Positions 1-22,548 of a stretch of DNA of 34,898 nt are shown piece after piece. A program made the translations under genes and the position numbers. How positions within the stretch are numbered: the stretch's first letter is position 1; each line of letters starts with the position of its first letter. The notes under the pieces were generated by a model. It was not told the origin of the DNA. It saw only the letters and a list, made by a program, of their open reading frames with translations, and ran no database searches. Source of the DNA: Opitutaceae bacterium (GTDB taxonomy: Bacteria > Verrucomicrobiota > Verrucomicrobiia > Opitutales > Opitutaceae); NCBI GenBank assembly GCA_947474995.1, contig CANJNJ010000045.1:1-34898 (forward strand). The letters run 5' to 3'.

Positions 1-234
1 AGTATCGCTGAGGTCTCGGAGAATCCTCAGTCCACTCGTGATCCCACCGTCGTTTTCAGTGCAACGTGCCGTTGATCCGCAATCGTTCCGGGGTGTCGGA
101 ATCACCGAGATTACCGCATTAACTCATTCGCATCGAACCGTATCAAATTAACCACTACCGGAAATCGCGGATTTTAAGATGACGGGAAATCTGGTTTCAA
201 CTCCCACCACCTCCATTTTTTCCCACAGAAAAAA

Positions 235-967: not shown

Positions 968-1708
968 ATGTACGCCCCTCCCTCCATTCTAGCATGCCCG
1001 CCCGTCAATAAACCTCTTATCCGGGTATTTATCGTCGATGACCATCCGATCGTTTCGGACCTCTTTTCCGACATGCTGAACCGGTCCGGTGATTTCACGG
1101 CGATTGGAACGGCGGCCGACGGCGAGACGGCGTTAAAAAAGTTGGAGAATTTGCCAGTGGATATCGTGATTTTGGACCTGATCCTGCCCGGCATGGGGGG
1201 GCTCGAGTTGGTGGATTTGCTGCGGGCGAATCGACCGAAGGCGAAGTTGGTGATATGCAGCGGCTTGGGGAGCGATAGAGCAATCGTGGAAGCCTATGCG
1301 CGCGGGGTGAATGCGTATGTGGAAAAATCAGGGGACGTGGAGGAACTTTTTTCCACGCTGCGCATCGTGGCTGAGGGAAAATATCTGCTGAACCCACGGA
1401 TTAGCGGACTCCTGGGCGATTTCGTTCGACAGTCCAACATCCTCAAGCCGATCGCGGCAGGGGACATGCATATCCTGCGGCAGCTGGCGGCCGGCCGGAC
1501 GTTGAAGCAAATTGCGAAGGAATTGGAAATTTCGGTGTCGGGAGTTTACAAATCCCGGGCGCGGATCCGGGCACGGATGAATATCAAGGGACCCGGAGGG
1601 TTCTTGGATGTCGCGCTCAGTCTCGGATTGGTTTACCCGACTGTGGCTGGATTGCCCAACGCTGCACGCCCCCCGATCGGGCAAGAAGAGGGCGCGATTT
1701 CGTCATGA
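968..1708 (+). CDS. Response regulator, receiver plus LuxR-type helix-turn-helix
   Basis: Cytoplasmic two-component output protein of 246 residues. The receiver domain starts about residue 18 (IRVFIVDDHP); D24/D25 form the acidic pocket, D70 in VILDLILPGMGG is the phosphoacceptor, S98 and K120 are the conserved Ser/Thr and Lys. A C-terminal helix-turn-helix of the LuxR/NarL kind spans roughly 165-206 (LRQLAAGRTLKQIAKELEISVSG). A further 40 residues follow, Pro-rich near the end. The ATG at 968 leaves about 17 residues before the receiver. Its stop overlaps the start of the next gene as ATGA (1705-1708), so the histidine kinase downstream is its likely partner. Target genes cannot be read from the sequence. 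Confidence 0.9.
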   Translation: MYAPPSILACPPVNKPLIRVFIVDDHPIVSDLFSDMLNRSGDFTAIGTAADGETALKKLENLPVDIVILDLILPGMGGLELVDLLRANRPKAKLVICSGLGSDRAIVEAYARGVNAYVEKSGDVEELFSTLRIVAEGKYLLNPRISGLLGDFVRQSNILKPIAAGDMHILRQLAAGRTLKQIAKELEISVSGVYKSRARIRARMNIKGPGGFLDVALSLGLVYPTVAGLPNAARPPIGQEEGAISS

Positions 1709-3615
1709 CTGGGACGACTCCCGTCATCGTCGCTCACTTGTCTGAACCGAGGGCGGATGACGAGACCTTGGCGCTTGAGGCGCTGAACCGGCTTGAGGCG
1801 GGGGAGGAAAAAGTGGTGTTTGTGTTTGATGGGGTTGCCTGGCGGTTTCTCAAACTCTGCGGACCCTGCGAGAAGTTATTAGGATTGAAGCGGGAGCAGA
1901 TCTTGATCGACCCGCAAGCCGTGCGGGCATCGATTGATGCCTTTGATTGGGCGACGGCGAGCGCTATGCGGGATGATCTCGACCGTTTCGGAAGCATTGT
2001 GCTTTCGATGCACGCGAAAGGGGCAGATGGGCGTAGGCGGCGGCTGCGCGTCTCGCTCATGAAACTGGAGTTTCCGGGGCGAACCTTGATTGCCGGTTCG
2101 GTGGTAGAGGCCGAATCGGGGGTCGAAAAGCATGATAACCCGGGTGCACTCCGGGCCGCGATGGAGGAATCAAACGTAGGGGTCGCGGTGACGGATTCGA
2201 AGGGTTGCTTCCTCTATCTCAATCGCGAGCATGTTGCACTGTTTGGCTACGATTCGATGGAGGAGCTGCTTGGGAAATCATGGCGGATTTTATATCCCGA
2301 AGAGGTTGCGCTCCATATTGAACAAGTCGTATTTCCGAAACTTCAGGCCACCGGGCAGTGGCGGGGTATGTTGCAGGCGAAACGCAAGGATGGCTCGCTT
2401 TTCCATGAGGCGCTCTCGCTTTCGTTTCTGCAGAGCGGTGGCCTCGTATGCAGTTGTCAGGATGTTACCGCACAGGTGAATATGACCGAGCGGATGGAGC
2501 GGAGCGAAGCGATGTTTCGAATTTTTCTGCACACGTTGCCCACGGGTGTTACCGTCCGCAATTCGATGGGTAAGTATGAATTCGTGAATTCGGCGACGTG
2601 GGCGTTTTTGGGATTGGCGCACGAAGACCAGAGCGAGCTCGAGGTCATAAGCGCGTGCCTATCGCAGAATGGAATCTTTGCCCCCTGGGCCGTAGCGGAT
2701 GAGCGCGTCTCGGCTACGGGCATCGAGGAACGTTTTGATTTCCGGCTCAACTGGGGCGGTCGCGATTTCGTGCTCGACGTCCAAAAGCTGCCTTTGCGGC
2801 TTAGTTCCGCAGGCGTCACGCATGTGTGTACTTTGTTTAATGACGTGACGGAAGCCCGGCGGATTGAAGCCGAGTCGGAGGAAACCGCGCGCCGGCGGAG
2901 CGAAATTAATGTGATCCAGCGGGAATTTGTCTCGATGGTGTCGCATGAATTCCGCACCCCGCTGACGGCCATCCAAGGTTTGCAGTATTTGATGAGTAGG
3001 AGGGCCGGCGAACTGGCCGAGTCCATCCCGACGGAATTCAAGCGCTGGCTGGAGCTGCAGAAGCAGGCGCTCGGGACGCTGAAAGAGTTGGTGGACCAGG
3101 TGCTGCTGCTGAATCGGATCGAGCACTTGTCGTCGGTCGTTCCGCAGTTGGTGCCGTTGAAGGCTTTTTTTAAACGAGTTCTGGATGGCCTTTTGGCTTC
3201 GCTGGTAACTCCGCGCATCGCATTTGAGCCGACTCTCCCGGACGAATTCACCGCGTTAATTGACGAGTCCCAGATGCGTGCGTTGGTGGAAAATCTGATC
3301 TCGAACGGATTGAAGTATTCGTCGGATGTTGTGACGTTACGCGTGGGAATCGATGGGCAAGACTGGTGGATGGAAGTTTCCGACCGTGGACGGGGCATTC
3401 CCGCAGCGGATCAAAAGAAACTCTTCCGACCGTTTTACCGGGCGAGCAATGTCGGCAATGTGACAGGCACCGGACTCGGACTGGCCATTGTCCAGCGGTG
3501 CGCGGCGTTTCACAAGGCCTCGGTCGCGGTTGAGAGCCGCGAGGGGGCGGGCACGAGCTTCACGGTTAGATTTCCGCAGAAATTTTCGGGGCCGTCCATG
3601 TCGCGGCCCGACTAA
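1705..3615 (+). CDS. PAS-domain sensor histidine kinase, no membrane segments
   Basis: 636-residue kinase, translationally coupled to the upstream response regulator by ATGA. Domains in order: a degenerate PAS-like region (about 20-145), a clear PAS domain (about 148-265; GVAVTDSKGCFLYLN, then GYDSMEELLGKSW), a second PAS-like domain (about 268-390; NSMGKYEFVNSATWAFLG), HisKA with H414 in VSHEFRTPLTAIQG, and HATPase_c with N box at N530 (ENLISNGLKYSS), G1 box DRGRGIP and G2 box GTGLGLAIV near 590. I see no signal peptide or transmembrane helix, so it probably senses a cytoplasmic or ligand/redox signal through PAS. It should phosphorylate the response regulator upstream and perhaps the receiver domain of the next gene. 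A 170-bp repeat starts 12 bases after its stop. Confidence 0.92.
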   Translation: MTGTTPVIVAHLSEPRADDETLALEALNRLEAGEEKVVFVFDGVAWRFLKLCGPCEKLLGLKREQILIDPQAVRASIDAFDWATASAMRDDLDRFGSIVLSMHAKGADGRRRRLRVSLMKLEFPGRTLIAGSVVEAESGVEKHDNPGALRAAMEESNVGVAVTDSKGCFLYLNREHVALFGYDSMEELLGKSWRILYPEEVALHIEQVVFPKLQATGQWRGMLQAKRKDGSLFHEALSLSFLQSGGLVCSCQDVTAQVNMTERMERSEAMFRIFLHTLPTGVTVRNSMGKYEFVNSATWAFLGLAHEDQSELEVISACLSQNGIFAPWAVADERVSATGIEERFDFRLNWGGRDFVLDVQKLPLRLSSAGVTHVCTLFNDVTEARRIEAESEETARRRSEINVIQREFVSMVSHEFRTPLTAIQGLQYLMSRRAGELAESIPTEFKRWLELQKQALGTLKELVDQVLLLNRIEHLSSVVPQLVPLKAFFKRVLDGLLASLVTPRIAFEPTLPDEFTALIDESQMRALVENLISNGLKYSSDVVTLRVGIDGQDWWMEVSDRGRGIPAADQKKLFRPFYRASNVGNVTGTGLGLAIVQRCAAFHKASVAVESREGAGTSFTVRFPQKFSGPSMSRPD

Positions 3616-3627
3616 GCCGGACTCGTG

Positions 3628-3797
3628 CAGTTGAAAGTTGAGAGGTGAAAGTTGAAAGCGATGAAGGCCGGGGCGAAATCGCTTTTTTTGAGCTGGGTTC
3701 GAGGCAAACTGCTCCGTGACTCCCCTTTCGCGGTCTCCACCGCAGTTAACTTTTTGCCTGCTCTGGCTTTCAACTTGCAACCTTCAACTCTCAACTG
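3628..3797 (-). repeat. Dispersed element with terminal inverted repeats, copy A (170 bp)
   Basis: The ends are imperfect inverted repeats of about 30 bp: CAGTTGAAAGTTGAGAGG at the left and CCTTCAACTCTCAACTG at the right. The interior, read on the minus strand, matches 30239-30393 closely (shared GGCAAAAAGTTAACTGCGG, ACCGCGAAAGGGGA, GTTTGCCTCGAACCCAGC, AGCGATTTCGCCCCGG). The 20 bases around its left end (3614-3633) also recur at 10301-10320 with two changes. Its size and structure suit a non-autonomous MITE-like or REPIN-like element; it carries no gene. Confidence 0.75.
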
Positions 3798-3868
3798 AAT
3801 TTTTCCGGCTTAGAAGCTAATCCCCTCGCCTCACCCATTTGATCGACCGTTGACCTTGCGCTTTTATA

Positions 3869-5626: not shown

Positions 5627-6262
5627 CTAGCGCGTGCCGGGAATGAACGCGACGATCCGGTCCAGACCTTTTTCCACTTTCTTGTAGTCGAGCCCGGGGA
5701 CCTGCTTGAGCTCGGCCACGGTCTTGAACGGGCCGTTCTTTTCGCGATACGCGATCACGGCCGCGGCCTCGCGACGCAGCAGGGTCAGGACCGTCTCGAA
5801 ATCGATCTGCACGGCCGTGTTGATGTTGATCGGACGCGGCGCCTCGCCGAGGAAGTTGGCGGCGAGGTAATCCACAATCGCGGCCTTCTCATCGTCGGTG
5901 GCTACCATCCCGCGCTTGGCCATGTCGGCGACGACGCCTTCCCATCCCTCAAGCGTGAGTCGAACGGACGCGGCGCGCTGCGGGTCGTGACACGTGATGC
6001 ACGCCTTGATCAGGACGTCGCGTCCGACACCCGCTGGCAGTCGGTCGTACGTTTCCGTCGCCCCGGGCGGTGTCGCCGGCGAGGCGCCAAAGCTCGCCGT
6101 TCCGGCCAGAACAAACGCTGACAGCACGAGGACCAGGCGCGACCGAAAGGGGGTCAGGTCGTTACTTGTTACATCCCATCCGGGTAGCCGCGCCTTGTAA
6201 CAAGTAACGACCTGACCCCGTTCGGTTACCGCTCGAACTTCAGTGCCGTTACCGCCGTTCAT
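5627..6262 (-). CDS. Cytochrome c / helix-hairpin-helix fusion, 5' end altered by a repeat
   Basis: The exported part has a hydrophobic signal segment (residues 39-60, FRSRLVLVLSAFVLAGTASFGA), one haem motif C88-I-T-C91-H92, a candidate Met ligand (KRGMVATDDE), and a ComEA-type helix-hairpin-helix domain at about 142-205 (ININTA..., AVIAYREKNGPF, LKQVPGLDY). Met at 6262 overlaps the end of the upstream propeller gene by 14 bases. However, residues 15-38 are encoded by the inverted repeat 6150-6219, and typical signal-peptide sequence resumes at residue 39, so the native start was probably lost; an in-frame GTG at 6127 is the only obvious alternative and leaves no basic residue ahead of the hydrophobic core. 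It is the third gene of the PQQ cassette and probably handles electrons from those periplasmic proteins. DNA binding by the hairpin domain outside the cytoplasm is unproven. Confidence 0.75.
   Translation of the reverse strand: MNGGNGTEVRAVTERGQVVTCYKARLPGWDVTSNDLTPFRSRLVLVLSAFVLAGTASFGASPATPPGATETYDRLPAGVGRDVLIKACITCHDPQRAASVRLTLEGWEGVVADMAKRGMVATDDEKAAIVDYLAANFLGEAPRPININTAVQIDFETVLTLLRREAAAVIAYREKNGPFKTVAELKQVPGLDYKKVEKGLDRIVAFIPGTR
6150..6219. repeat. REPIN-like inverted repeat 1 (24-bp perfect arms)
   Basis: Left arm 6150-6173 begins GGGGTCAGGTCGTTAC and ends TTGTTACA; right arm 6196-6219 is its exact reverse complement, ending GACCTGACCCC. The loop is 22 bases. It has the same architecture as 9895-9963 (20 of 24 arm positions agree between left arms) and shares GGGGTC ends with 10478-10623 and 15935-16080. 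Such elements are typically moved by RAYT/Y1 transposases, but no such gene is present here. Confidence 0.85.
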
Positions 6263-8057
6263 CCAGAAATCCGAACGCGTGCACCGTGCCGTCGTTCGTG
6301 CCGACGTAGACCTGGCTCAGCGCGCTCCAGAAGCTGCCCGGCGATCCGAAGGTCGTCATGGCCTTGGCACTGTTCCAAAGGGCCTTGCCCGACACGCCAT
6401 CGTACGCGTAGAGCACGGCCGGAGTTCCGGTTCCACCCGCCGCCGCCGGCCGGCCGGACGAAAGAGCGAACACCACGCCGTTCGCGATGATCGGCGTCGC
6501 GGCGGTCGTCAAGTCATGCGAGGTCCACGCGGGCTCGAGCGACAGTACACCGTTGGTCTCGGCCACTCGCAGGGCCACCACGGCGCCGCTGCGAATGGCG
6601 CCGTTCGTCGCGGGAGCACCAGCAGGGCTGCCCGCAAGCGGCACGAGCACCCAGCGCGTTTCGGAGGCTGGAACCGCGCCCGCCGCCGCCGCGGCGCGCG
6701 CCCAGGTGGAGAGTGCTTCCGCCGCGATGGAACCGCCGCTGGCGACGAGGGGGCGCGAGGCCGCTAGGGGCGTGGCATGGTTCGCGCCACCCAGCGACGC
6801 GACGTCGAGCAGGATCACGCGTCCGTCTTTCGTGGCGGCAGCCACCACATCGCGCGTGCCATAACGGAAGACCGTCGGGCCCGTGACGAACTCCGCGGTG
6901 GGCTGCGTGAACCAGTCCTTCAGTTGCAGAGTCTTCGGATCCAGCGCGACGATGGCGTTCGCCTTGCCGTCGCCGGTAACCAGGCCGGCACCGATTGCCA
7001 CCAGCAGCGTGTTGCCGTCCGACGAGAACGCCACGGGGCCGACGACGCTGCCGCCGTTCGTGCGATACGACACGACCGGCTTGGTGGCGGCATCGAGATC
7101 GATGGCGAACACGCCGTTCGGCGCCCCACCGCAACTGCCCGAGGTTGCCGTGTACATCATCGTCCCGACGGCGACGGCGTTGGTCCAGTTCGAGTTGGCC
7201 GGAACGAAGGGCACGGGCCGTTGCAGGTCTTTGCCCGACTGGAGGCCGACCACGTGGAGTTGGCCATCGCCGGAAACAACGTAGCCGACCATCGGACTGC
7301 CGAGTCCACTCGTTCCGAGGTTGGGTGCACCCGGAATGGCGGCGCCCCGGGCACGACCCGGTTGCGCCGTGCCTGGCGCCGCCGGAGCAGCGGCCGCGCC
7401 GCCGCCGGCAGGGGCAGGGGCACGCGCGAATCCAGCCTCACCAGCGGGAGCCGCCGGCACGGGCGCGGGCGCGGGCCGACCCGCGGCCCGACCAGGGCGA
7501 CCGCCCGGCGCTTCAACCGGAATACCCTGGCCAGGCTCGCCGAGTAGGCTGCGGTAGCCCTGCTGGTTGCCGCGTCCCGTCGGCGCTGCCGCCGCCGCCC
7601 CGGGCGCCGGAGTGGGCGCGGCCGCCGCCGGCACGATGCGCGTCGGCGCCGACGCGATTCCGCCGCTGCAACCTGCGGTTACCGCCGGCAAGGCGCCTTC
7701 GAACGTGCGGGACCACACGACGTAGCCGGTGTCGTTGTCGAGGAGATAGAGGTTGTTGGAACTGCCCGCCACGAGCGTCGCCGGCACGAAAAGCGTCACG
7801 CCGCTGGCCGTGACGCCCTGCGTGAGCCCCGCGAGGCCACGGGTTTGATTGGCGAGCTTCGACGTCCACTGCAGCTCGAAGCCTGGGGCCGACATCGAAT
7901 CGACGGAGATATTCGGATCCGTCCGCAGCCACGACGTGCGCTGAGCGTCAGCGTACGGGGTGGGCCAGTCGGACCAGCCGCGGTTGACCTGGGCAAACGT
8001 CGCACTCCCGGCCACCAGGGAGGCGAGAACAATAAGAGCAGTTCGTTGAGTGTGCAT
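6249..8057 (-). CDS. Secreted PQQ-type beta-propeller protein with Ala/Pro/Gly insert
   Basis: 602 residues from the ATG at 8057, chosen because a good GGAGG site sits at 8064-8068 and the product then begins with a clean signal peptide (MHTQRTALIVLASLVAGSATFAQ). Propeller blades of the PQQ-binding-like kind repeat along the chain (LYLLDNDTGYVVWSRTFEG; NAIVALDPKTLQLKDW; LYAYDGVSGKALWNS; VYVGTNDGTVHAFG). Residues about 165-280 form a low-complexity Ala/Pro/Gly-rich insert between blades. There is no haem motif and I see no clear catalytic signature, so enzymatic PQQ alcohol dehydrogenase activity is not established. It is spaced 13 bases after the upstream paralogue and overlaps the cytochrome gene downstream, so the three form one operon. 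Confidence 0.82.
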   Translation of the reverse strand: MHTQRTALIVLASLVAGSATFAQVNRGWSDWPTPYADAQRTSWLRTDPNISVDSMSAPGFELQWTSKLANQTRGLAGLTQGVTASGVTLFVPATLVAGSSNNLYLLDNDTGYVVWSRTFEGALPAVTAGCSGGIASAPTRIVPAAAAPTPAPGAAAAAPTGRGNQQGYRSLLGEPGQGIPVEAPGGRPGRAAGRPAPAPVPAAPAGEAGFARAPAPAGGGAAAAPAAPGTAQPGRARGAAIPGAPNLGTSGLGSPMVGYVVSGDGQLHVVGLQSGKDLQRPVPFVPANSNWTNAVAVGTMMYTATSGSCGGAPNGVFAIDLDAATKPVVSYRTNGGSVVGPVAFSSDGNTLLVAIGAGLVTGDGKANAIVALDPKTLQLKDWFTQPTAEFVTGPTVFRYGTRDVVAAATKDGRVILLDVASLGGANHATPLAASRPLVASGGSIAAEALSTWARAAAAAGAVPASETRWVLVPLAGSPAGAPATNGAIRSGAVVALRVAETNGVLSLEPAWTSHDLTTAATPIIANGVVFALSSGRPAAAGGTGTPAVLYAYDGVSGKALWNSAKAMTTFGSPGSFWSALSQVYVGTNDGTVHAFGFLDERR

Positions 8058-8070
8058 CGTTATCCTCCGC

Positions 8071-9642
8071 TTAACGGACACCAAAGGCGTAGAGCATCCC
8101 GTCGAACGTCCCGATGTAGGCGCGGCCATTCGCGACGGTCATGCCGCTGAAGTGATTCCATGACTCGATCGTTGTCCCGCTGTTCCAGAGCTCCTTGCCG
8201 GTCTGGCCGTCGAGTGCGTAGAGCATGGCCTTGCGCGCGTTCGGGACGCGACGATCGGCACCGGCCGAGAGGCCGCCGCCGTACCGGGGACCGCCGGGTT
8301 CGTCCCAGGCGACGTCCTGCACCGTCTGCGTGCCGTCGGTGCCGCTCGAGTACGCGAAGATGATGCCGTTGGCGATGACGACCTCTTCGGCCAGATCCAT
8401 GTCGCGCGAGAGCCAGGCGGGCGTGAGCTGCCACTTGCCCCCGATTTCCTCGAGCTTGAAAGCCGCGACGCCGCCGTTCTGCGGCCGGCTGTGCTCGATG
8501 GGCGCCTTGAACTGCGTGCTCACCGGTCCCCAGAAGGGCACGAGCACCCACTGGTTGCCCTGGGGATCCTGCCAGGCGCTGAGCGCGCCCCACACGCCGA
8601 CGCCGGCGAACGCCTGCGAATCGGCGCCGATGAGCGGCGTCGTATAAAGCGTCGTGCGGTGATCCTCGCCGCCGAGGTTGTCGCGATCGAGCAGCCACAG
8701 GCGCGCCTCCTTGCTGGTGCCGACGAGGAACTTCCGGCCGCGGTAGTCGAACGCGACGGGCGTGGTGTTCACGTCGAGGTCGCGGCGCCACAGCCAATTG
8801 GCATTCGGCGCGGCGAAGAAGTCGACAAGCTGCAGTTGTTGGTTCGCGTCGAGCTTGACGCCCACGATGCCGTTGCCCAGCCGACGGTTCGCCGGGTCGA
8901 ACATGGCGTCGCCCGTGCCCAGATAGATTCTGCCTTCGGCGTCGATCGCGGCGCCGCGGCGTCCCCAAAGGCCGCCGCCGGCCGGAATGAACGAGCTCGC
9001 GCGGCGCGACGCCAGGTCGAAGGAGTGGAAGGCGTTGATCAAGCCACCGCAGCCCTGCGCGGTCGCCGTGTAGACGACGCCGTCCTTGTAGTTGAGGGCG
9101 TACGGCTTGCCGTTGCCCGGAAGGAATTTCTGCGGAGGCGCGACATCTTCACCGTCGCCGAGGTTGATCTGGTGCAGCCTGCCGTCCCAGGACACGGCGT
9201 AGACGGTGTACTTTCCCGGCGAGACCTGCACCAGCGCCGGCACGGCGGTCTGTCCGCCGGGGCAGAGCACGTTGTTGACGGGCGCCTGATTGGTGAGGCG
9301 GTTCTCGAATTTCCGACGCCAGAGGACCTGGCCATCGGCCGCGTTGATCGCGAACAGGTCGTCGCTAATGCCGGCGACCAGACCCACCTCGAGCGCGCCT
9401 TGTGGCGTGGTCACGTTTTCGGCGATGAGCGGGGCGAACAGATTGTGCATCGAACGAGGCGTGCTGTTGAGCGGGACGCGCCACAGCAGCTTCGTGGAGG
9501 TGACGTTCGCGGGCGTGAAGACCTTCTCGTCCTTCACCCAGCCGGTTCGTCCGATATCGACGCCTTCCATGAGGGCGTCGGAGGCAGCGAGCGTCGCGCC
9601 CGAGAGCAGGAGCGTGGTCACCAGCAGTTTTCGAATGCGCAT
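8071..9642 (-). CDS. Secreted PQQ-type beta-propeller protein
   Basis: 523 residues from the ATG at 9642; that start gives a signal peptide (MRIRKLLVTTLLLSGATLAA), whereas the open frame extends upstream into repeat-rich, non-conserved sequence. PQQ-like blades recur: LFAINAADGQVLWRRKFEN, YTVYAVSWDGRLHQINLGDG, LWLLDRDNLGGEDH, LYALDGQTGKELWNSG, AYIGTFDGMLYAFGVR. Blade wording and end structure (LYAxDGxxGKxLWNS, then YxGTxDGxxxAFG) match the next gene, so the two are paralogues. Upstream on the minus strand there is only a weak purine run (GAAAGAAA). Probably periplasmic, working with the paralogue and the cytochrome c/HhH protein; substrate unknown. Being first in the operon, its promoter should lie in 9643-9826. 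Confidence 0.82.
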   Translation of the reverse strand: MRIRKLLVTTLLLSGATLAASDALMEGVDIGRTGWVKDEKVFTPANVTSTKLLWRVPLNSTPRSMHNLFAPLIAENVTTPQGALEVGLVAGISDDLFAINAADGQVLWRRKFENRLTNQAPVNNVLCPGGQTAVPALVQVSPGKYTVYAVSWDGRLHQINLGDGEDVAPPQKFLPGNGKPYALNYKDGVVYTATAQGCGGLINAFHSFDLASRRASSFIPAGGGLWGRRGAAIDAEGRIYLGTGDAMFDPANRRLGNGIVGVKLDANQQLQLVDFFAAPNANWLWRRDLDVNTTPVAFDYRGRKFLVGTSKEARLWLLDRDNLGGEDHRTTLYTTPLIGADSQAFAGVGVWGALSAWQDPQGNQWVLVPFWGPVSTQFKAPIEHSRPQNGGVAAFKLEEIGGKWQLTPAWLSRDMDLAEEVVIANGIIFAYSSGTDGTQTVQDVAWDEPGGPRYGGGLSAGADRRVPNARKAMLYALDGQTGKELWNSGTTIESWNHFSGMTVANGRAYIGTFDGMLYAFGVR

Positions 9643-9826
9643 AGGGGTTTCTTTCAGGCGATGCAGACGTGGCCGGTCGGCGAGCCCGCCAAGGGGCTCC
9701 TGCTCGCCAACGGAGGCTGCGTTTTTCGACGACGGCGTGATGGGCGTCAATGCAAACAGGACGGAACGGGGCGGGGGGATCGCAGGGTGGGGGATGTCCA
9801 CAGGGTCACCCGGTGCGAAGCTCGTG

Positions 9827-9856
9827 AAAGGTGGGCCGGGCACTCCGTGCCCGGCC
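9827..9856. repeat. REP-like hairpin arm, GGCCGGGCAC-TCC-GTGCCCGGCC
   Basis: A perfect 10-bp stem with loop TCC (9834-9856), preceded by AAAGGTG and by GAAGCTCGTG. The same block, including the following GATGGAACGTG-like bases, recurs at 16111-16150 (GAAGCTCGGG, AAAGGTGGGCCGGGC, ATGGAACGTG), where it forms one arm of a larger inverted repeat. So this is a single-arm copy of that family. Confidence 0.7.
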
Positions 9857-9866
9857 GATGGAACGT

Positions 9867-9900
9867 GGCCGGTTCACGGGGTCGGCCGGTTCACGGGGTC
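9867..9900. repeat. Tandem duplication, 17 bp x 2
   Basis: The unit GGCCGGTTCACGGGGTC occurs twice back to back with no mismatch (9867-9883, 9884-9900). Its last six bases are the GGGGTC end of inverted repeat 2, so the duplication copies the element's boundary and may be a scar of insertion or slippage there. Confidence 0.8.
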
Positions 9901-9963
9901 GAGTCGTTACACGTTACATGCACCAGAAATGATTGATATTGTAACATGTAACGACTCGACCCC
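9895..9963. repeat. REPIN-like inverted repeat 2 (24-bp arms, one mismatch)
   Basis: Left arm 9895-9918 (GGGGTCGAGTCGTTAC...GTTACA) pairs with right arm 9940-9963 (TGTAACATG...GACTCGACCCC) with one mismatch at 9912; the loop is 21 bases. It is the sister of 6150-6219, and the two lie on either side of the PQQ propeller genes. Its right edge coincides with the point where the HepT-like reading frame becomes conserved. Confidence 0.85.
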
Positions 9964-9969
9964 TTTGGA

Positions 9970-10302
9970 TTGCCCCTGTATGATGTGCTGGACTCCGGCC
10001 GCGCGATCGCCGGTTGGTGCGCGGGCCTGACGTTTGCCGACTACGAGGCGGACCGGCAGTTTCGCCGGGCGGTGGAACGTGAGTTCGAAGTCATCGGCGA
10101 ACCGTTGGGTCGTCTGACTCGCACCGCCCCGGAAATGGCCGGCCGAATCGACGGACTGCCGCGGATTGTCGGGTTCAGAAACCGTATAATTCACGGCTAC
10201 GACGTGATCGATCATGCGGCGGTGTGGGGAGTAATGCAAAGCCATCTGCCCAAGCTCCTCGATGAAATTGAAACACTGCTGGCGGAATCCGATCGAGACT
10301 GA
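9970..10302 (+). CDS. HepT-like (DUF86) protein, N-terminus lost, no MntA partner
   Basis: About 110 residues of the HepT/DUF86 family: the diagnostic RX4HXY motif is present (RNRIIHGY), as are the family blocks DVLDSGRAI, EFEVIGEPLGRL and VWGVMQSHLPKL. HepT proteins are HEPN-type RNase toxins silenced by AMP addition from a MntA nucleotidyltransferase antitoxin. There is no ATG: the frame can start only at TTG 9970 or GTG 9985, and family members usually have about ten more residues ahead of LYDVLDSG. Those residues are replaced by inverted repeat 2, which ends at 9963. No MntA-like gene lies on either side. It is probably a 5'-truncated and perhaps silent remnant; the catalytic motif itself is intact. 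Confidence 0.75.
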   Translation: MPLYDVLDSGRAIAGWCAGLTFADYEADRQFRRAVEREFEVIGEPLGRLTRTAPEMAGRIDGLPRIVGFRNRIIHGYDVIDHAAVWGVMQSHLPKLLDEIETLLAESDRD

Positions 10303-10326
10303 GCCGGACTCATGCAGTTGGATCGA

Positions 10327-10399: not shown

Positions 10400-10477
10400 A
10401 TTCAGTGTTCGCCGTTCCGCTCGCGAAAAGGCATTCGACTGCAACGATCCGGCTGAGCCGCCCAGCGCCAGTTCGAA

Positions 10478-10623
10478 GGGGTCACGTCAGGACATAGGAC
10501 AAACCTACGGCCGACCCTCGCCGCCCAAGCGGAAACGAGGCCGGCGTGAGGCCAATCCGCTCGCGGCGCCCAGCTGCAGCCGCTGTGCGATCCAGCCATT
10601 GTCCTATGTCCTGACGTGACCCC
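10478..10623. repeat. 146-bp REPIN-like unit, copy 1
   Basis: Perfect 25-bp inverted arms (10478-10502, starting GGGGTCACGTCAGGAC; 10599-10623, ending GTCCTGACGTGACCCC) surround a 96-base GC-rich core that can fold further. The unit at 15935-16080 differs by one base in the core (T versus C in CCGCTGYGCGATCC), and 10-13 flanking bases on each side are also shared with one mismatch each. The two copies are in the same orientation. Confidence 0.9.
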
Positions 10624-10790
10624 GTCTGGGTGGCTCGGATTGAAAAGTGCCAATTGGAAATCTGTCATTGCTCATCGACGGGCCGCGTAACAAACCGCGG
10701 ATTGCCCCCTCGTCTGGTCCGTCGAAATCGAGGCAAGCGGGTGATCACAAGTAGGGTTGCCATCGCCATCGCCGCTTTCACGCTGGCCGC

Positions 10791-13700
10791 ATGTTCCGGT
10801 GGACTCGACTCGGCCTTGCCCCGCTGATCATCCTCCCGCTGTCGCAGGGCGCTGGCGTCGACTTTTCGCGCGAAGTCCGGCCCATCCTGGCCGAACATTG
10901 TTATCCGTGCCATGGGCCCGACGCCACGGAGCGCAAGTCGGAGCTGCGCCTGGACCAGCGCGACTCCGCCCTCAAGGGCGGCAAATCGAAGTTGCCCGCC
11001 ATCGTTCCGGAACGGCCGGATGACAGCGAGCTGCTTCTCCGGATCATGTCCGCCGATCCGGACGAGGTCATGCCGCCGCCGGACGCGAACAAGCCGCTCA
11101 CCGCCGGGCAAAAGGAAACCCTGCGCCGATGGGTCGCATCCGGCGCGGAGTATGCCCCGCACTGGGCTTTTGTCGCTCCGGTCAAGGTAGCACTACCGGG
11201 GCCGTCGGGTGGGAATCCGATCGACGCCTTTGTCGCCGCCAAGCTCGCGTCCAAGAGCGTGGCGGCGTCGGCGCCAGCGGATGCCCCGGCGCTCTGCCGG
11301 CGGCTGTATCTCGATCTCACCGGGCTGCCGCCGTCGCCGCAGGAGGTCGCCGCTTTTGCCACGGCGGCGCAGGCCGGTCTCGCCCAGGCCGCGGCCGGGA
11401 CCGTCGACCGGCTGCTGGCCAGTGAGGCCTACGGCGAGCGTTGGGCGCGGATCTGGCTCGACGTGGCGCGCTATGCCGACAGCAACGGCTTCGAGAAGGA
11501 TCTGCCGCGGGCGGAGTGGGCGTGGCGCGATTGGGTGATCGACGCGCTCAACCGCGACCAACCCTACGATCAGTTTCTGATCGAACAGATCGCCGGCGAT
11601 CTCCTCCCCAACGCCACGCCCGCTCAGGTCGTGGCCACCGGTTTCCTGCGCAACGGCATGGTCAACGAGGAAGGCGCCGTCGTCGCCGAGCAGTTTCGGA
11701 TCGAGGGCATCGTCGATCGCCTCGACTGCATCGGCAAGGCCGCGCTCGGGCTCACCCTGCAGTGCGCGCAATGCCACACGCACAAGTTCGATCCAATCAC
11801 GCACGACGAGTATTTCGGCGCCTTCGCGTTTCTGAACAACGCCCATGAGGCTCAGTCCTGGGTCTACACTCCGCCACAGCGGAAAGAAATGGAGCAGGTG
11901 CTCTCCGGGCTCCGCGCTGTCGACGAGCGCAGCCGGCAGGCCCAGCCAGCGTGGCGCGAAAAACTCGCGGCCTGGGTCGCCGAATTGCAGCGGCAGCGGA
12001 TCGAGTGGACGCCACTGATCGCAGCCGAAACCGACAGCACTGGCGGGTTGAATCATCCGGTGCAGCTGGCGGATCTTTCCATCCTTACCGTGGGCCATCC
12101 GACGGTTAAGGGCGGCATCTACGTCATCAGCCAGCCGGTCCTGGCCGGCGCGACCGGCCTGCGGGTCGAGGCGCTCACTCACGGCGACCTGCCTTTCGGC
12201 GGCCCGGGTCACAGCCGGTACGGCACCTGGGCCCTGACCGAACTGGAAGTCTTCGTGCAGCCCCCGGGCAGCGAAAAGTGGGAGAAGGTGGGCTTGAAAA
12301 ACGCGACCGCCGATTTTTCCGAACCTACCCGCGGGCTCGAGCCAGAGTGGAAAGCCCTGTCGATCGATCCCGACGGTCGGCGCACCTGCGGGCCGGTGGC
12401 GTTCCTGATCGATGGCAGCGAAGACACGGCATGGCGGGCGGATCGTGGACCCGGCCGCCGCAATCAGGAATCGGTGGCGGTCGTCCAGTTCGAAAGCCCC
12501 TTGACCCACCCGGCCGGCACCAAGCTCAAGGTGCTGTACACCATGAACCACGGCGAGGACACGACGGGACGGGGCAGCACCATGCTGGGGCGAGCCCGGT
12601 TTTCGCTGACCAACGCGCCTGACCCCAAGGCGGCGCCCGTCGATTACGCGGCCATCCTCGCCCTCGAAATCCCGGCGGGCCAGCGCACCGCCGCCCAGGA
12701 GGAACTCATCGATCGAGCCTGGCGCGCCAGCGACCCGGCAGCCGCCAAGTTCAATGACGAGGCCGCCGCGCTTTGGAAAAAATTTCCGACCGCGCAGACC
12801 TCGGTCCTCCATCTGGCGGAATGCCAGCCGCCCTTGGCGCGGGAAACGCATTTGCTGGAACGCGGCGCGTGGGACCGGCCGAGGCAAACGGTCGCTCCCC
12901 ATGTGCCCGCCGCGCTGCACCCGATGGAGACGGACGGGCCGCGCGACCGGCTCGCCTTCGCCCGCTGGATCGCGGACCGGCGTTCGCCGCTGGCCGCCCG
13001 CGTCGCCGTGAACCGCGTCTGGCAGGCCCTTTTTGGACTCGGGCTGGTGGAGACACCCGAGGATTTCGGCACCCGTGCTCCCTCGCCGGAATATGGCGAA
13101 TTGCTCGATTGGCTCGCCGTTGAATTCATGGAGCAGGGCTGGAGCCAGAAGCGGCTGATCCGCGCGATCGTGACGAGCCGCACCTACCAGCAGGATTCGC
13201 GGTTGACGCCCCTGCTGCTCGAACGCGATCCGGGCAACCGCCTGCTGGCGCGGGGCCCACGCTTTCGGGCCGACGCCGAGATGGTGCGCGACATCGCGCT
13301 GGCCGCGGCCGGCGTGCTCACCCGCAAGGTGGGCGGGCCCAGCGTTTTTCCACCGGTGCCGGAAAACGTCCTCTCGTATAATTACGTCAAGCCCGACTAT
13401 TGGCACGTGCCCGACGGACCGGAGCGCTATCGCCGCAGCCTCTACCTTTTTCGCAAGCGCTCGATGCCCGATCCGATGCTGACGGCCTTTGATGCGCCCA
13501 ATGCGGACTTGGCCTGTGCCCGTCGCGCCCGTTCCAATACGCCGATGGCCGCGCTGACCAGCCTCAACGAGCCGATTTTCGTCGAAGCCGCCCAAGGCCT
13601 CGCCCGGCGCATCTGGCGCGAGGGCGGCTCGAGCGATGCGGAAAGAATCGCCTACGGCTACCGCCTCTGCACCGCCCGCTCACCGGCCGGCGCGGAGATG

Positions 13701-13895: not shown

Positions 13896-14066
13896 TCGTG
13901 AACTTCAAGCAAGCAGGAGCAGAAACCGCTAATCCATGCCAATGAACGCTGATGAAAAAACTGGATTCCGATTTCATTTCATTCCCTTTGGGTCCGATAC
14001 CCCGAAGTTTACCCGCCTCTGGCGGCGCCAAAGGCGACCAGGGCTGGCTTCGGCTTGGATGGCGTA

Positions 14067-14116
14067 GCTGCGAGCGCCAGCGAGCGGACGGCAGACCACT
14101 CGCTGGCGCTCGCAGC
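14067..14116. repeat. Perfect 18-bp inverted repeat (GCTGCGAGCGCCAGCGAG)
   Basis: Arms 14067-14084 and 14099-14116 are exact reverse complements with a 14-base loop. One arm type, GTAGCYGCGAGCG..., recurs twice at 22824-22889, so this belongs to a dispersed family rather than being a one-off terminator. Confidence 0.8.
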
Positions 14117-14174
14117 CACCTGAACGCGGCACCTGGGGTGATCGATGTTTGGCATGGGTGGGATTGTTCGAATG

Positions 14175-15671: not shown

Positions 15672-15934
15672 GGCGCGGTGGTCGCCCTGGCGAAAACGTC
15701 CACGCGGGCAATTAGCGATTACAGATTTTCAATTACCAATTTGCAATTTTAGTTCGCATCCATCCTGCCGCGGCGTAGCCGCAACCAAACGAGAGGGAGT
15801 TTTTTGGCCACTGATTTCACAGATGGACACAGATGTCGGAGAATGGAATTGGTGTTTATCTGGCGTCGGCGCCACGCGGCGAATCCCAACACGCCGAGGC
15901 CGAGCAGCGTGGCGCAGGTGGCGGCCAGTCCGAA

Positions 15935-16080
15935 GGGGTCACGTCAGGACATAGGACAAACCTACGGCCGACCCTCGCCGCCCAAGCGGAAACGAGGCCG
16001 GCGTGAGGCCAATCCGCTCGCGGCGCCCAGCTGCAGCCGCTGCGCGATCCAGCCATTGTCCTATGTCCTGACGTGACCCC
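15935..16080. repeat. 146-bp REPIN-like unit, copy 2
   Basis: Arms 15935-15959 and 16056-16080 are perfect 25-bp inverted repeats, identical to those of copy 1, with a 96-base core differing by one base. Same orientation as copy 1, 5.46 kb apart, with the PSCyt1 and DUF1501 genes between them. Confidence 0.9.
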
Positions 16081-16110
16081 GTCTGGCTGGCTCCCGGTAC
16101 GAAGCTCGGG

Positions 16111-16198
16111 AAAGGTGGGCCGGGCACTCCGTGCGCGGCCATGGAACGTGAGAGGGAGCCCACCGATTGGCCGCGCGCGGAGCGCCCGGCCCACCTTT
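16111..16198. repeat. Inverted repeat, 31-bp arms, AAAGGTGGGCCGGGC family
   Basis: Left arm 16111-16141 and right arm 16168-16198 are complementary at 29 of 31 positions, loop 26 bases. Within each arm there is a smaller palindrome around CTCCG. A single related arm lies at 9827-9856. It starts 31 bases after the 146-bp unit and may be part of a nested insertion. Confidence 0.8.
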
Positions 16199-22063: not shown

Positions 22064-22548
22064 GAGGCGGTGAGCCGGCGGCAGGGGGGACTAACGCCGA
22101 TCGGCCCCGTTTCTTCCATCCCGGATTGACGGTGGCGCAGAGGCAGGAAATTCAGCCCAGGGCTGGGAGCAGCGTGTCTGGGCCGGAACGTTGCAGCCCC
22201 AGCCGCAAAAGCGACTCCTGCCCGTGACGGAAAGAAACAGATCTGTTTGTAGTTCCGCCTTTAGGCGGAATCCGACCCGTTCAAGCCTTCCGCCTAAAGG
22301 CGGGACGACCAACCAGGCGCTGTTTCTTGAGAGAGTTGGATCTCGTTTCGCCCGCGAAAACGAAATCACTGAAAGGCGGAGCAAGTTGTCCTCAACGCGC
22401 TGCAGTAATTCCGCTCTGAGGTCGGCCGCTTGGGCACAGCGGCTCCACCTCGACTACACAAGTCCGGTTTAGACACCCTCTGAAATTCCGAAAATCGCAA
22501 AAAACGCATTTCGCTGCAACTTTTCAGATCGAGCCGGGTTCTGGAGAC
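22064..22548. other. Intergenic region with a REPIN-like palindrome
   Basis: No supported gene; an apparent frame at 22191-22472 is low-complexity and runs through the repeat. Holds a 14-bp perfect palindrome AAACAGATCTGTTT (22235-22248) and the paired element 22252-22306. A GGAG at 22541-22544 serves as ribosome binding site for the next gene. Confidence 0.55.
22252..22306. repeat. REPIN-like pair of GTTCCGCCTTTAGGCGGAA
   Basis: Left arm 22252-22270 and right arm 22288-22306 are inverted copies (18 of 19 positions), and each arm is itself nearly palindromic (TTCCGCC-TTTA-GGCGGAA). Loop 17 bases. Two inverted palindromes a short distance apart is the defining REPIN plan. Confidence 0.8.

What the first reader, a model, noticed from the sequence alone, without database searches (positions are those of the whole stretch)
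6150..9963. Sister inverted repeats bracket the PQQ propeller genes and cut into the genes at both edges
6150-6219 and 9895-9963 share arm length (24 bp), loop length (22 and 21) and most arm bases. The first replaces the natural 5' end of the cytochrome c/HhH gene: repeat-encoded residues 15-38 are directly followed by signal-peptide sequence. The second ends seven bases before the conserved HepT frame, which has lost its start codon. So both elements sit exactly where a gene's beginning should be, and the two propeller genes lie between them. Either the elements insert preferentially near starts or the boundaries are recombination junctions of an imported block.
Basis: partly seen in the sequence, partly recalled or inferred. 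Interest (0 to 1): 0.7.

Follow-up and report, generated by a model that had tools for sequence, protein, structure and literature searches.

The report
Two transposase-linked hairpin repeats at gene starts
Two short hairpin repeats, of a type probably moved by a tyrosine transposase that the same genome encodes, lie against two genes that have lost their original start codons; the kind is known, and the two repeats do not bound an imported block.

Summary
6150-6219 and 9895-9963 are hairpin doublets with 24-nt arms (GGGGTC-NN-GTCGTTAC-NN-GTTACA). They are non-autonomous REP/TIR dimers (REPIN-like) of a Y1/HUH tyrosine transposase: the same genome encodes one (contig C175) flanked by inverted copies of this motif, and 22 of 30 fetched homologous loci (one of them own) carry GGGGTC-type inverted flanks. 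This matches the published TIRYT/TIRtron kind.

Both genes have lost their starts. An 86%-identical HepT in a relative begins six codons earlier, overlapping mntA; no mntA was found in the window, and homology begins at 9972, where the element ends. The cytochrome c gene keeps its signal-peptide core, but its native start is gone; the only common start left before that core (ATG 6262) reads in frame through the element.

"Bracketing an imported block" fails: the left element lies inside the operon, whose order is found in 4 of 14 acidobacterial loci. "Preference for starts" is not supported: 14 of 19 gene sides next to 13 other elements are 3' ends. The three genes themselves look imported.

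Least expected: in 8 of 22 half-sites the outer ~11-nt tail plus 2-10 nt of arm is tandemly repeated (2.7% at random positions).

The parts
6139..6230 (.). Left element: hairpin doublet with tails. Arms 6150-6173 and 6196-6219; the outer tails (6139-6149 and 6220-6230) pair with each other over 6 bp in the predicted fold
   Evidence: the 11-nt tail length is carried over from the C86 family, so the outer limits are inferred
9868..9972 (.). Right element: arms 9895-9918 and 9940-9963; left tail GGCCGGTTCAC present twice (17-nt period), right tail TTTGGATTG to 9972
   Evidence: the C13 copy (L008) has a similar loop and shares tail sequence on both sides
5627..6262 (-). Cytochrome c / helix-hairpin-helix frame; native start lost. 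ATG 6262 reads in frame through the element; the next common start, GTG 6127, lies inside the signal-peptide core
6249..8057 (-). PQQ-type propeller gene 2; its stop lies 18 bp from the left element's inferred end
8074..9657 (-). PQQ-type propeller gene 1 (frame stretch used in the searches), nested among acidobacterial homologues
9970..10302 (+). HepT-like frame without its first six codons and without mntA upstream; TTG 9970 is element-tail sequence
10467..10636 (.). 170-bp element of a second family (arms GGGGTCACGTCAGGACATAGGACA), arms as flank the C86 transposase gene
15924..16093 (.). Second copy of that 170-bp element, 98% identical
9809..9856 (.). Repeat of a third family (core GGTGGGCCGGGCACTCCGTGC at 9830-9850), as flanks the C171 transposase gene; also as an inverted pair at 16111-16198

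Best explanation
Both repeats are non-autonomous REP/TIR doublets (REPIN- or MITE-like) of a long Y1/HUH tyrosine transposase of the TIRYT type. Most likely the transposase (for the right element, the one on contig C175) recognises the GGGGTC hairpin and its ~11-nt outer tail as single-stranded DNA and moves the doublet to new sites. One copy landed between propeller gene 2 and the cytochrome c gene and replaced the latter's start codon; the frame stays open from ATG 6262 through the element, so a protein with an element-encoded N-terminus is possible. The other lies at a junction where mntA and the first six codons of hepT were lost, which probably silences an orphan toxin frame. Shown: the motif, the cognate flanks, the missing starts, the gene order in relatives. 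Inferred: mobilisation by this enzyme, the single-strand route, and that insertion rather than a later deletion removed the starts.
For: Consensus arm at 20 half-sites (up to 3 mismatches) in the own genome, 0 for the reversed control. C175 transposase frame (L028:2-1033, Y1_Tnp E 4.3e-12) with the motif at 25-48 (-) and 1037-1060 (+). Three further long Y1 genes have their own GGGGTC- or GGGTC-type inverted flanks: C203, C21, C86. 22 of 30 fetched homologous loci show such flanks, 8 do not. Protein and arm distances correlate over 23 loci, Mantel r 0.49, 0 of 5000 permutations as high. HepT against G051. Cytochrome N-termini and gene order in relatives. Folding. Published TIRYT description with GGGGWSAS flanks.
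Against: No strain pair with and without a given insertion was found, so movement is not observed. The left element's exact arm type was not found beside a transposase gene. The Mantel correlation is also expected from linkage of arms and gene. The 2018 classification reported no REP-like sequences near subclass 2.1 genes. Pfam shows no C-terminal HTH in the three proteins tested. The genome is a draft, and some contigs end near these repeats.
Confidence: 0.8

Rival explanations
1. The two elements are recombination junctions at the two ends of an imported propeller block.
For: The genes look foreign: cytochrome c at E<=1e-15 in 1 of 115 genomes (own only), propeller 1 at E<=1e-40 in 1 of 142 (own only), the 5 relatives found among named genomes all acidobacterial, GC 0.678 against 0.628 for the rest. 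The right element lies where mntA was lost.
Against: The left element is inside the operon: propeller 2 and cytochrome c are adjacent and co-directional in 4 of 14 acidobacterial loci. The left arm type has no match (up to 2 mismatches) in 162 genomes of one acidobacterial order but near matches in congeners, so it probably arrived after import.
Confidence: 0.12
2. Recombination between the two inverted elements flipped the propeller pair relative to the cytochrome gene.
For: In 4 of 14 loci, including the one nearest by identity (L071, 74%), the cytochrome gene is divergent from propeller 1, and the window order is what an inversion would give. The window's nearest tree neighbour, L077, has no cytochrome gene next to the pair, so it does not settle the ancestral order.
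Against: The co-directional order also exists in 4 of 14 loci, among them the outgroup L076 and deeper branches. The divergent loci form one supported clade without the window in both trees (96/95, 99/98). Arms agree within each element, whereas a crossover inside the hairpins would leave mixed arms.
Confidence: 0.07
3. The hairpins are ordinary transcription terminators or regulatory hairpins of the genes.
For: Strong hairpins between genes; most other copies lie at 3' ends.
Against: The same sequence is dispersed at other loci and beside a transposase gene, and sister copies share tails outside the hairpin.
Confidence: 0.05

Closest known systems
TIRYT / TIRtron (TIR-associated tyrosine transposases; PMC3733652: section 16 and passages seen; subclass 2.1 of PMC6006769: section 13, section 15 part 1 and passages seen)
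   Same: Long Y1/HUH protein with NH[FY]H and Y[IV]HLNP motifs, flanking inverted repeats beginning GGGG, related dimers elsewhere in the genome.
   Different: C175/right-hand arms begin GGGGTCGA and do not fit GGGGWSAS; the left element's GGGGTCAG does. No HTH domain hit in three proteins. Tandemly repeated outer tails are not mentioned in the parts seen.
REPINs / BIMEs of RAYT groups 2 and 3 (PMC8266576: passages seen; PMC3116915: search listing only)
   Same: Inverted REP doublet forming a long hairpin, non-autonomous, with a Y1 transposase gene flanked by the same repeat.
   Different: No constant GTAG foot, 24-nt arms, few copies (20 half-sites), longer transposase.
Intragenic REP dimers of Opitutus terrae (PMC3733652 passages)
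   Same: REP dimers inside coding regions, the inserts encoding 20 to 30 residues.
   Different: Those are GTAG repeats.

Membership tests
TIRYT / TIRtron | Y1/HUH transposase gene flanked by terminal inverted repeats | tested here: met
   C175 gene with motif copies on both sides; 22 of 30 homologous loci
TIRYT / TIRtron | Flank motif GGGGWSAS (shared by some TIRs in PMC3733652) | tested here: inconclusive
   Left element GGGGTCAG fits; C175/right element GGGGTCGA shares only GGGGTC
TIRYT / TIRtron | Dimers of the repeat dispersed in the genome | tested here: met
TnpA-Y1 subclass 2.1 | NHVH or NH[YF]H, and YIELNP or Y[IV]HLNP motifs | tested here: met
   NH[FY]H in 23 of 23 and Y[IV]HLNP in 20 of 23 proteins
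TnpA-Y1 subclass 2.1 | C-terminal helix-turn-helix-like domain | tested here: inconclusive
   Long C-terminal extension present, but no HTH family in Pfam for three proteins at E up to 5
REPIN (RAYT groups 2/3) | GTAG or GTGG tetranucleotide foot | tested here: not met
   The bases before GGGG vary: GTAA, GTAG, CCAA, TCAC, CAAA and others
REPIN (RAYT groups 2/3) | Two inverted REPs with a short spacer | tested here: met
TIRYT / REPIN | Binding and strand-specific cutting by the cognate transposase | not testable with these tools
   needs purified protein

The most novel reading that the evidence does not exclude
The outer tail, not just the hairpin, is a working part of these elements: the transposase nicks about 11 nt outside GGGG, and repeated nicking with abortive copying leaves tandem copies of the tail plus the first 2-10 nt of the arm. 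Those iterated tails would be a footprint, readable in sequence, of how TIRYT-type transposases act.
Probability: 0.25. Interest if true: 0.55.

Novelty: new member of a known kind. Interest (0 to 1): 0.35.

Why it matters
It gives a genome in which four long Y1 transposase genes each have their own GGGGTC- or GGGTC-type flanks, two of them (C175, C86) with dispersed doublets shown here. [quoted passage not shown] The element boundaries and repeated tails suggest a concrete cutting site to test. It also shows how such elements can take over gene starts and mislead start calling: the TTG at 9970 is element sequence.

Tried and rejected
Inversion of the propeller pair between the two elements looked attractive after two relatives showed the divergent order (the same two places are L071 and L078). 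The wider set and two trees spoke against it. In one search the window row of the cytochrome tree was taken in the wrong frame and left out by the program; one search repeats the tree with the right frame, where the window's own place is unsupported (45/18) although outside the starred divergent clade (99/98).

Import as a bounded block: rejected for the left edge, kept open for the right. DNA upstream of propeller 1 (9658-9895) has no match at E<=0.1 in six acidobacterial loci, so the donor-side end was not located. A search of part of MntA against the window gave a best E of 0.005 at 11652-11750, which I take as chance.

Literature: none of the papers listed was seen to describe repeated tails, but only PMC3733652, PMC6006769 and PMC8266576 were opened, in part, so absence from print is not shown.

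The tail-repeat count was made after I had noticed the pattern in the same half-sites, so its p-value (6e-8) is post hoc. Positions 40-200 nt further out gave 0 or 1 of 21 at six offsets. In the relatives' set, some of whose sequences I had already seen, 8 of 63 paired GGGGTC sites show it, but these lie in only 6 loci (3 in L090). Rates to compare: 1.8% at random positions there (674 of 38,000), 5.1% of 490 GGGGT positions (which include those sites) and 3.1% of 959 GGGG positions in acidobacterial loci; against the GGGGT rate the excess is modest. The C86 family shows 0 of 13.

Full report
Observation. The arm motif occurs four times in the window against a mean of 0 in 100 shuffles, and both strands of both elements fold far below shuffled energies.

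What they are. In the own genome (5.24 Mb, 261 contigs) the motif GGGGTCNNGTCNNTACNNGTTACA has 15 exact matches, and the consensus has 20 within 3 mismatches, with none for the reversed control. A relaxed scan of ten stretches (up to 5 mismatches) gives 22 half-sites (sequences). Seven Y1_Tnp matches were found at E<=0.001. The gene on contig C175 lies between inverted copies of this motif. The C86 gene is flanked by GGGGTCATGTCAGGACATAGGACA, nearly the arm of the window's two 170-bp elements. The C171 gene is flanked by the GGTGGGCCGGGCACTCCGTGC repeat that also lies at 9809-9856 and 16111-16198. C203 and C21 have their own GGGGTC- or GGGTC-type arms. So the window holds repeats of three families that flank transposase genes in this genome.

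Wider family. A search with the C175 protein finds matches at E<=1e-40 in 59 of 115 genomes, own included. Of the 30 loci fetched (one of them own), 22 show flanking inverted repeats of the GGGGTC type, three of them altered at this hexamer on at least one side (L096, L104, L107); 8 show none by the crude test used. Over 23 loci (20 of those 22 plus C203, C21 and C86; L096 and L104 dropped for lack of a full GGGG) protein and arm distances correlate, Mantel r 0.49, 0 of 5000 permutations as high; linkage alone could give this. The window motif itself, with one mismatch allowed, is in 7 of 115 genomes, own included, so these exact arms are narrow while the kind is broad.

Where the elements end. 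In the C86 family, 10 of 13 half-sites share an outer tail beginning GCCA(G/C), about 11 nt before GGGG, and diverge beyond it; the solo site and the two beside the transposase gene do not. In the C175 family, the C13 copy has a similar loop to the window's right element and shares the left tail CCGGTTCAC and the right tail TTTGGATTG. The left element's tails pair with each other. I therefore put the elements at about 6139-6230 and 9868-9972; for the left one this is inference.

HepT. Matches at E<=1e-12 occur in 15 of 115 genomes, own included. In G051 (86% identical) HepT starts at an ATG six codons upstream of the window's homology and overlaps the end of the mntA frame, whose stop is at L115:1351. 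Nucleotide homology covers window 9972-10305 at 80%. No convincing mntA match was found in the window. The TTG at 9970 belongs to the element's tail.

Cytochrome c. Its HhH and haem-binding domains are recognised. In the relatives looked at, a short signal peptide follows an ATG of their own; in L073, L074 and L076 that ATG lies 2, 4 and 32 nt behind the in-frame stop of propeller 2, in L070 much further. In the window this place is taken by the element. The signal-peptide core survives. No ATG, GTG or TTG lies in frame within the element; the starts on either side are ATG 6262, overlapping the end of propeller 2, and GTG 6127, inside the core. Whether the longer protein is made and exported is unknown.

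Origin of the three genes. Cytochrome c is found at E<=1e-15 in 1 of 115 genomes (own), propeller 1 at E<=1e-40 in 1 of 142 (own, which also holds a weaker second match). The named-genome scan found 5 relatives, all acidobacterial (it finds close relatives only). In 14 acidobacterial stretches fetched around cytochrome matches, the trio is co-directional in 4, divergent in 4, otherwise placed in 3, and only the cytochrome gene is seen in 3. Propeller 1 of the window groups with L077 (87/88) beside a clade that holds the divergent loci (96/95 starred); the divergent loci form a clade without the window in the cytochrome tree also (99/98). The co-directional order is thus best read as ancestral, though L077, which has no cytochrome gene next to the pair, leaves room for doubt. 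The left element is then an insertion into a standing operon. The left arm type has no match in 162 genomes of one acidobacterial order and near matches in congeners, which points to insertion after import.

Preference. Around 13 other elements of the two families (the window's own, the C244 site, the C86 sites and the other C175 sites were not included), 19 gene sides lie within 400 bp without overlap: 14 are 3' ends and 5 are 5' ends (stop-to-stop frames chosen by codon-position GC). Two elements overlap an open frame and those frames were not counted. This agrees with the published location of REPs downstream of coding regions.

Tails. In 8 of 22 half-sites the 8 nt before GGGG recur, with at most one mismatch, 9-26 nt further out, against 531 of 20,000 random positions; in relatives 8 of 63 (6 loci), in the C86 family 0 of 13 (further controls). 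The repeated unit begins near the outer end of the tail and ends 2-10 nt into the arm (read). Slippage at a hairpin is the plain explanation; repeated nicking by the transposase is the bolder one.

Known kind. The best fit is the TIRYT/TIRtron kind (PMC3733652 section 16) and subclass 2.1 (PMC6006769 section 15 part 1).

Noticed in passing
window 3612-3817 and L028:2217-2423: An element of about 206 bp (91% identical copies, inverted ends). On C175 it is inserted in the loop of a hairpin doublet, with CTCAG on both sides: one mobile element nested in another.
   Followed up: partly
window 10467-10636 and 15924-16093: Two 98%-identical 170-bp elements of the C86 family; the family has 13 half-sites in the genome, most with the same 11-nt tail.
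   Followed up: partly
window 14064-14119 and 22245-22313: Further hairpins (GTAGCTGCGAGCGCCAGCGAGCGG; TTCCGCCTTTAGGCGGAA), possibly REPs of other families.
   Followed up: no
window 9970-10302: Orphan HepT frame with the RNRIIHGYD stretch present but without mntA or a native start: a toxin frame stranded by the loss of its partner.
   Followed up: yes
G000 contigs C82, C175, C244: These contigs end within 19 to 133 bases of a half-site, so the copy number may be an underestimate.
   Followed up: no
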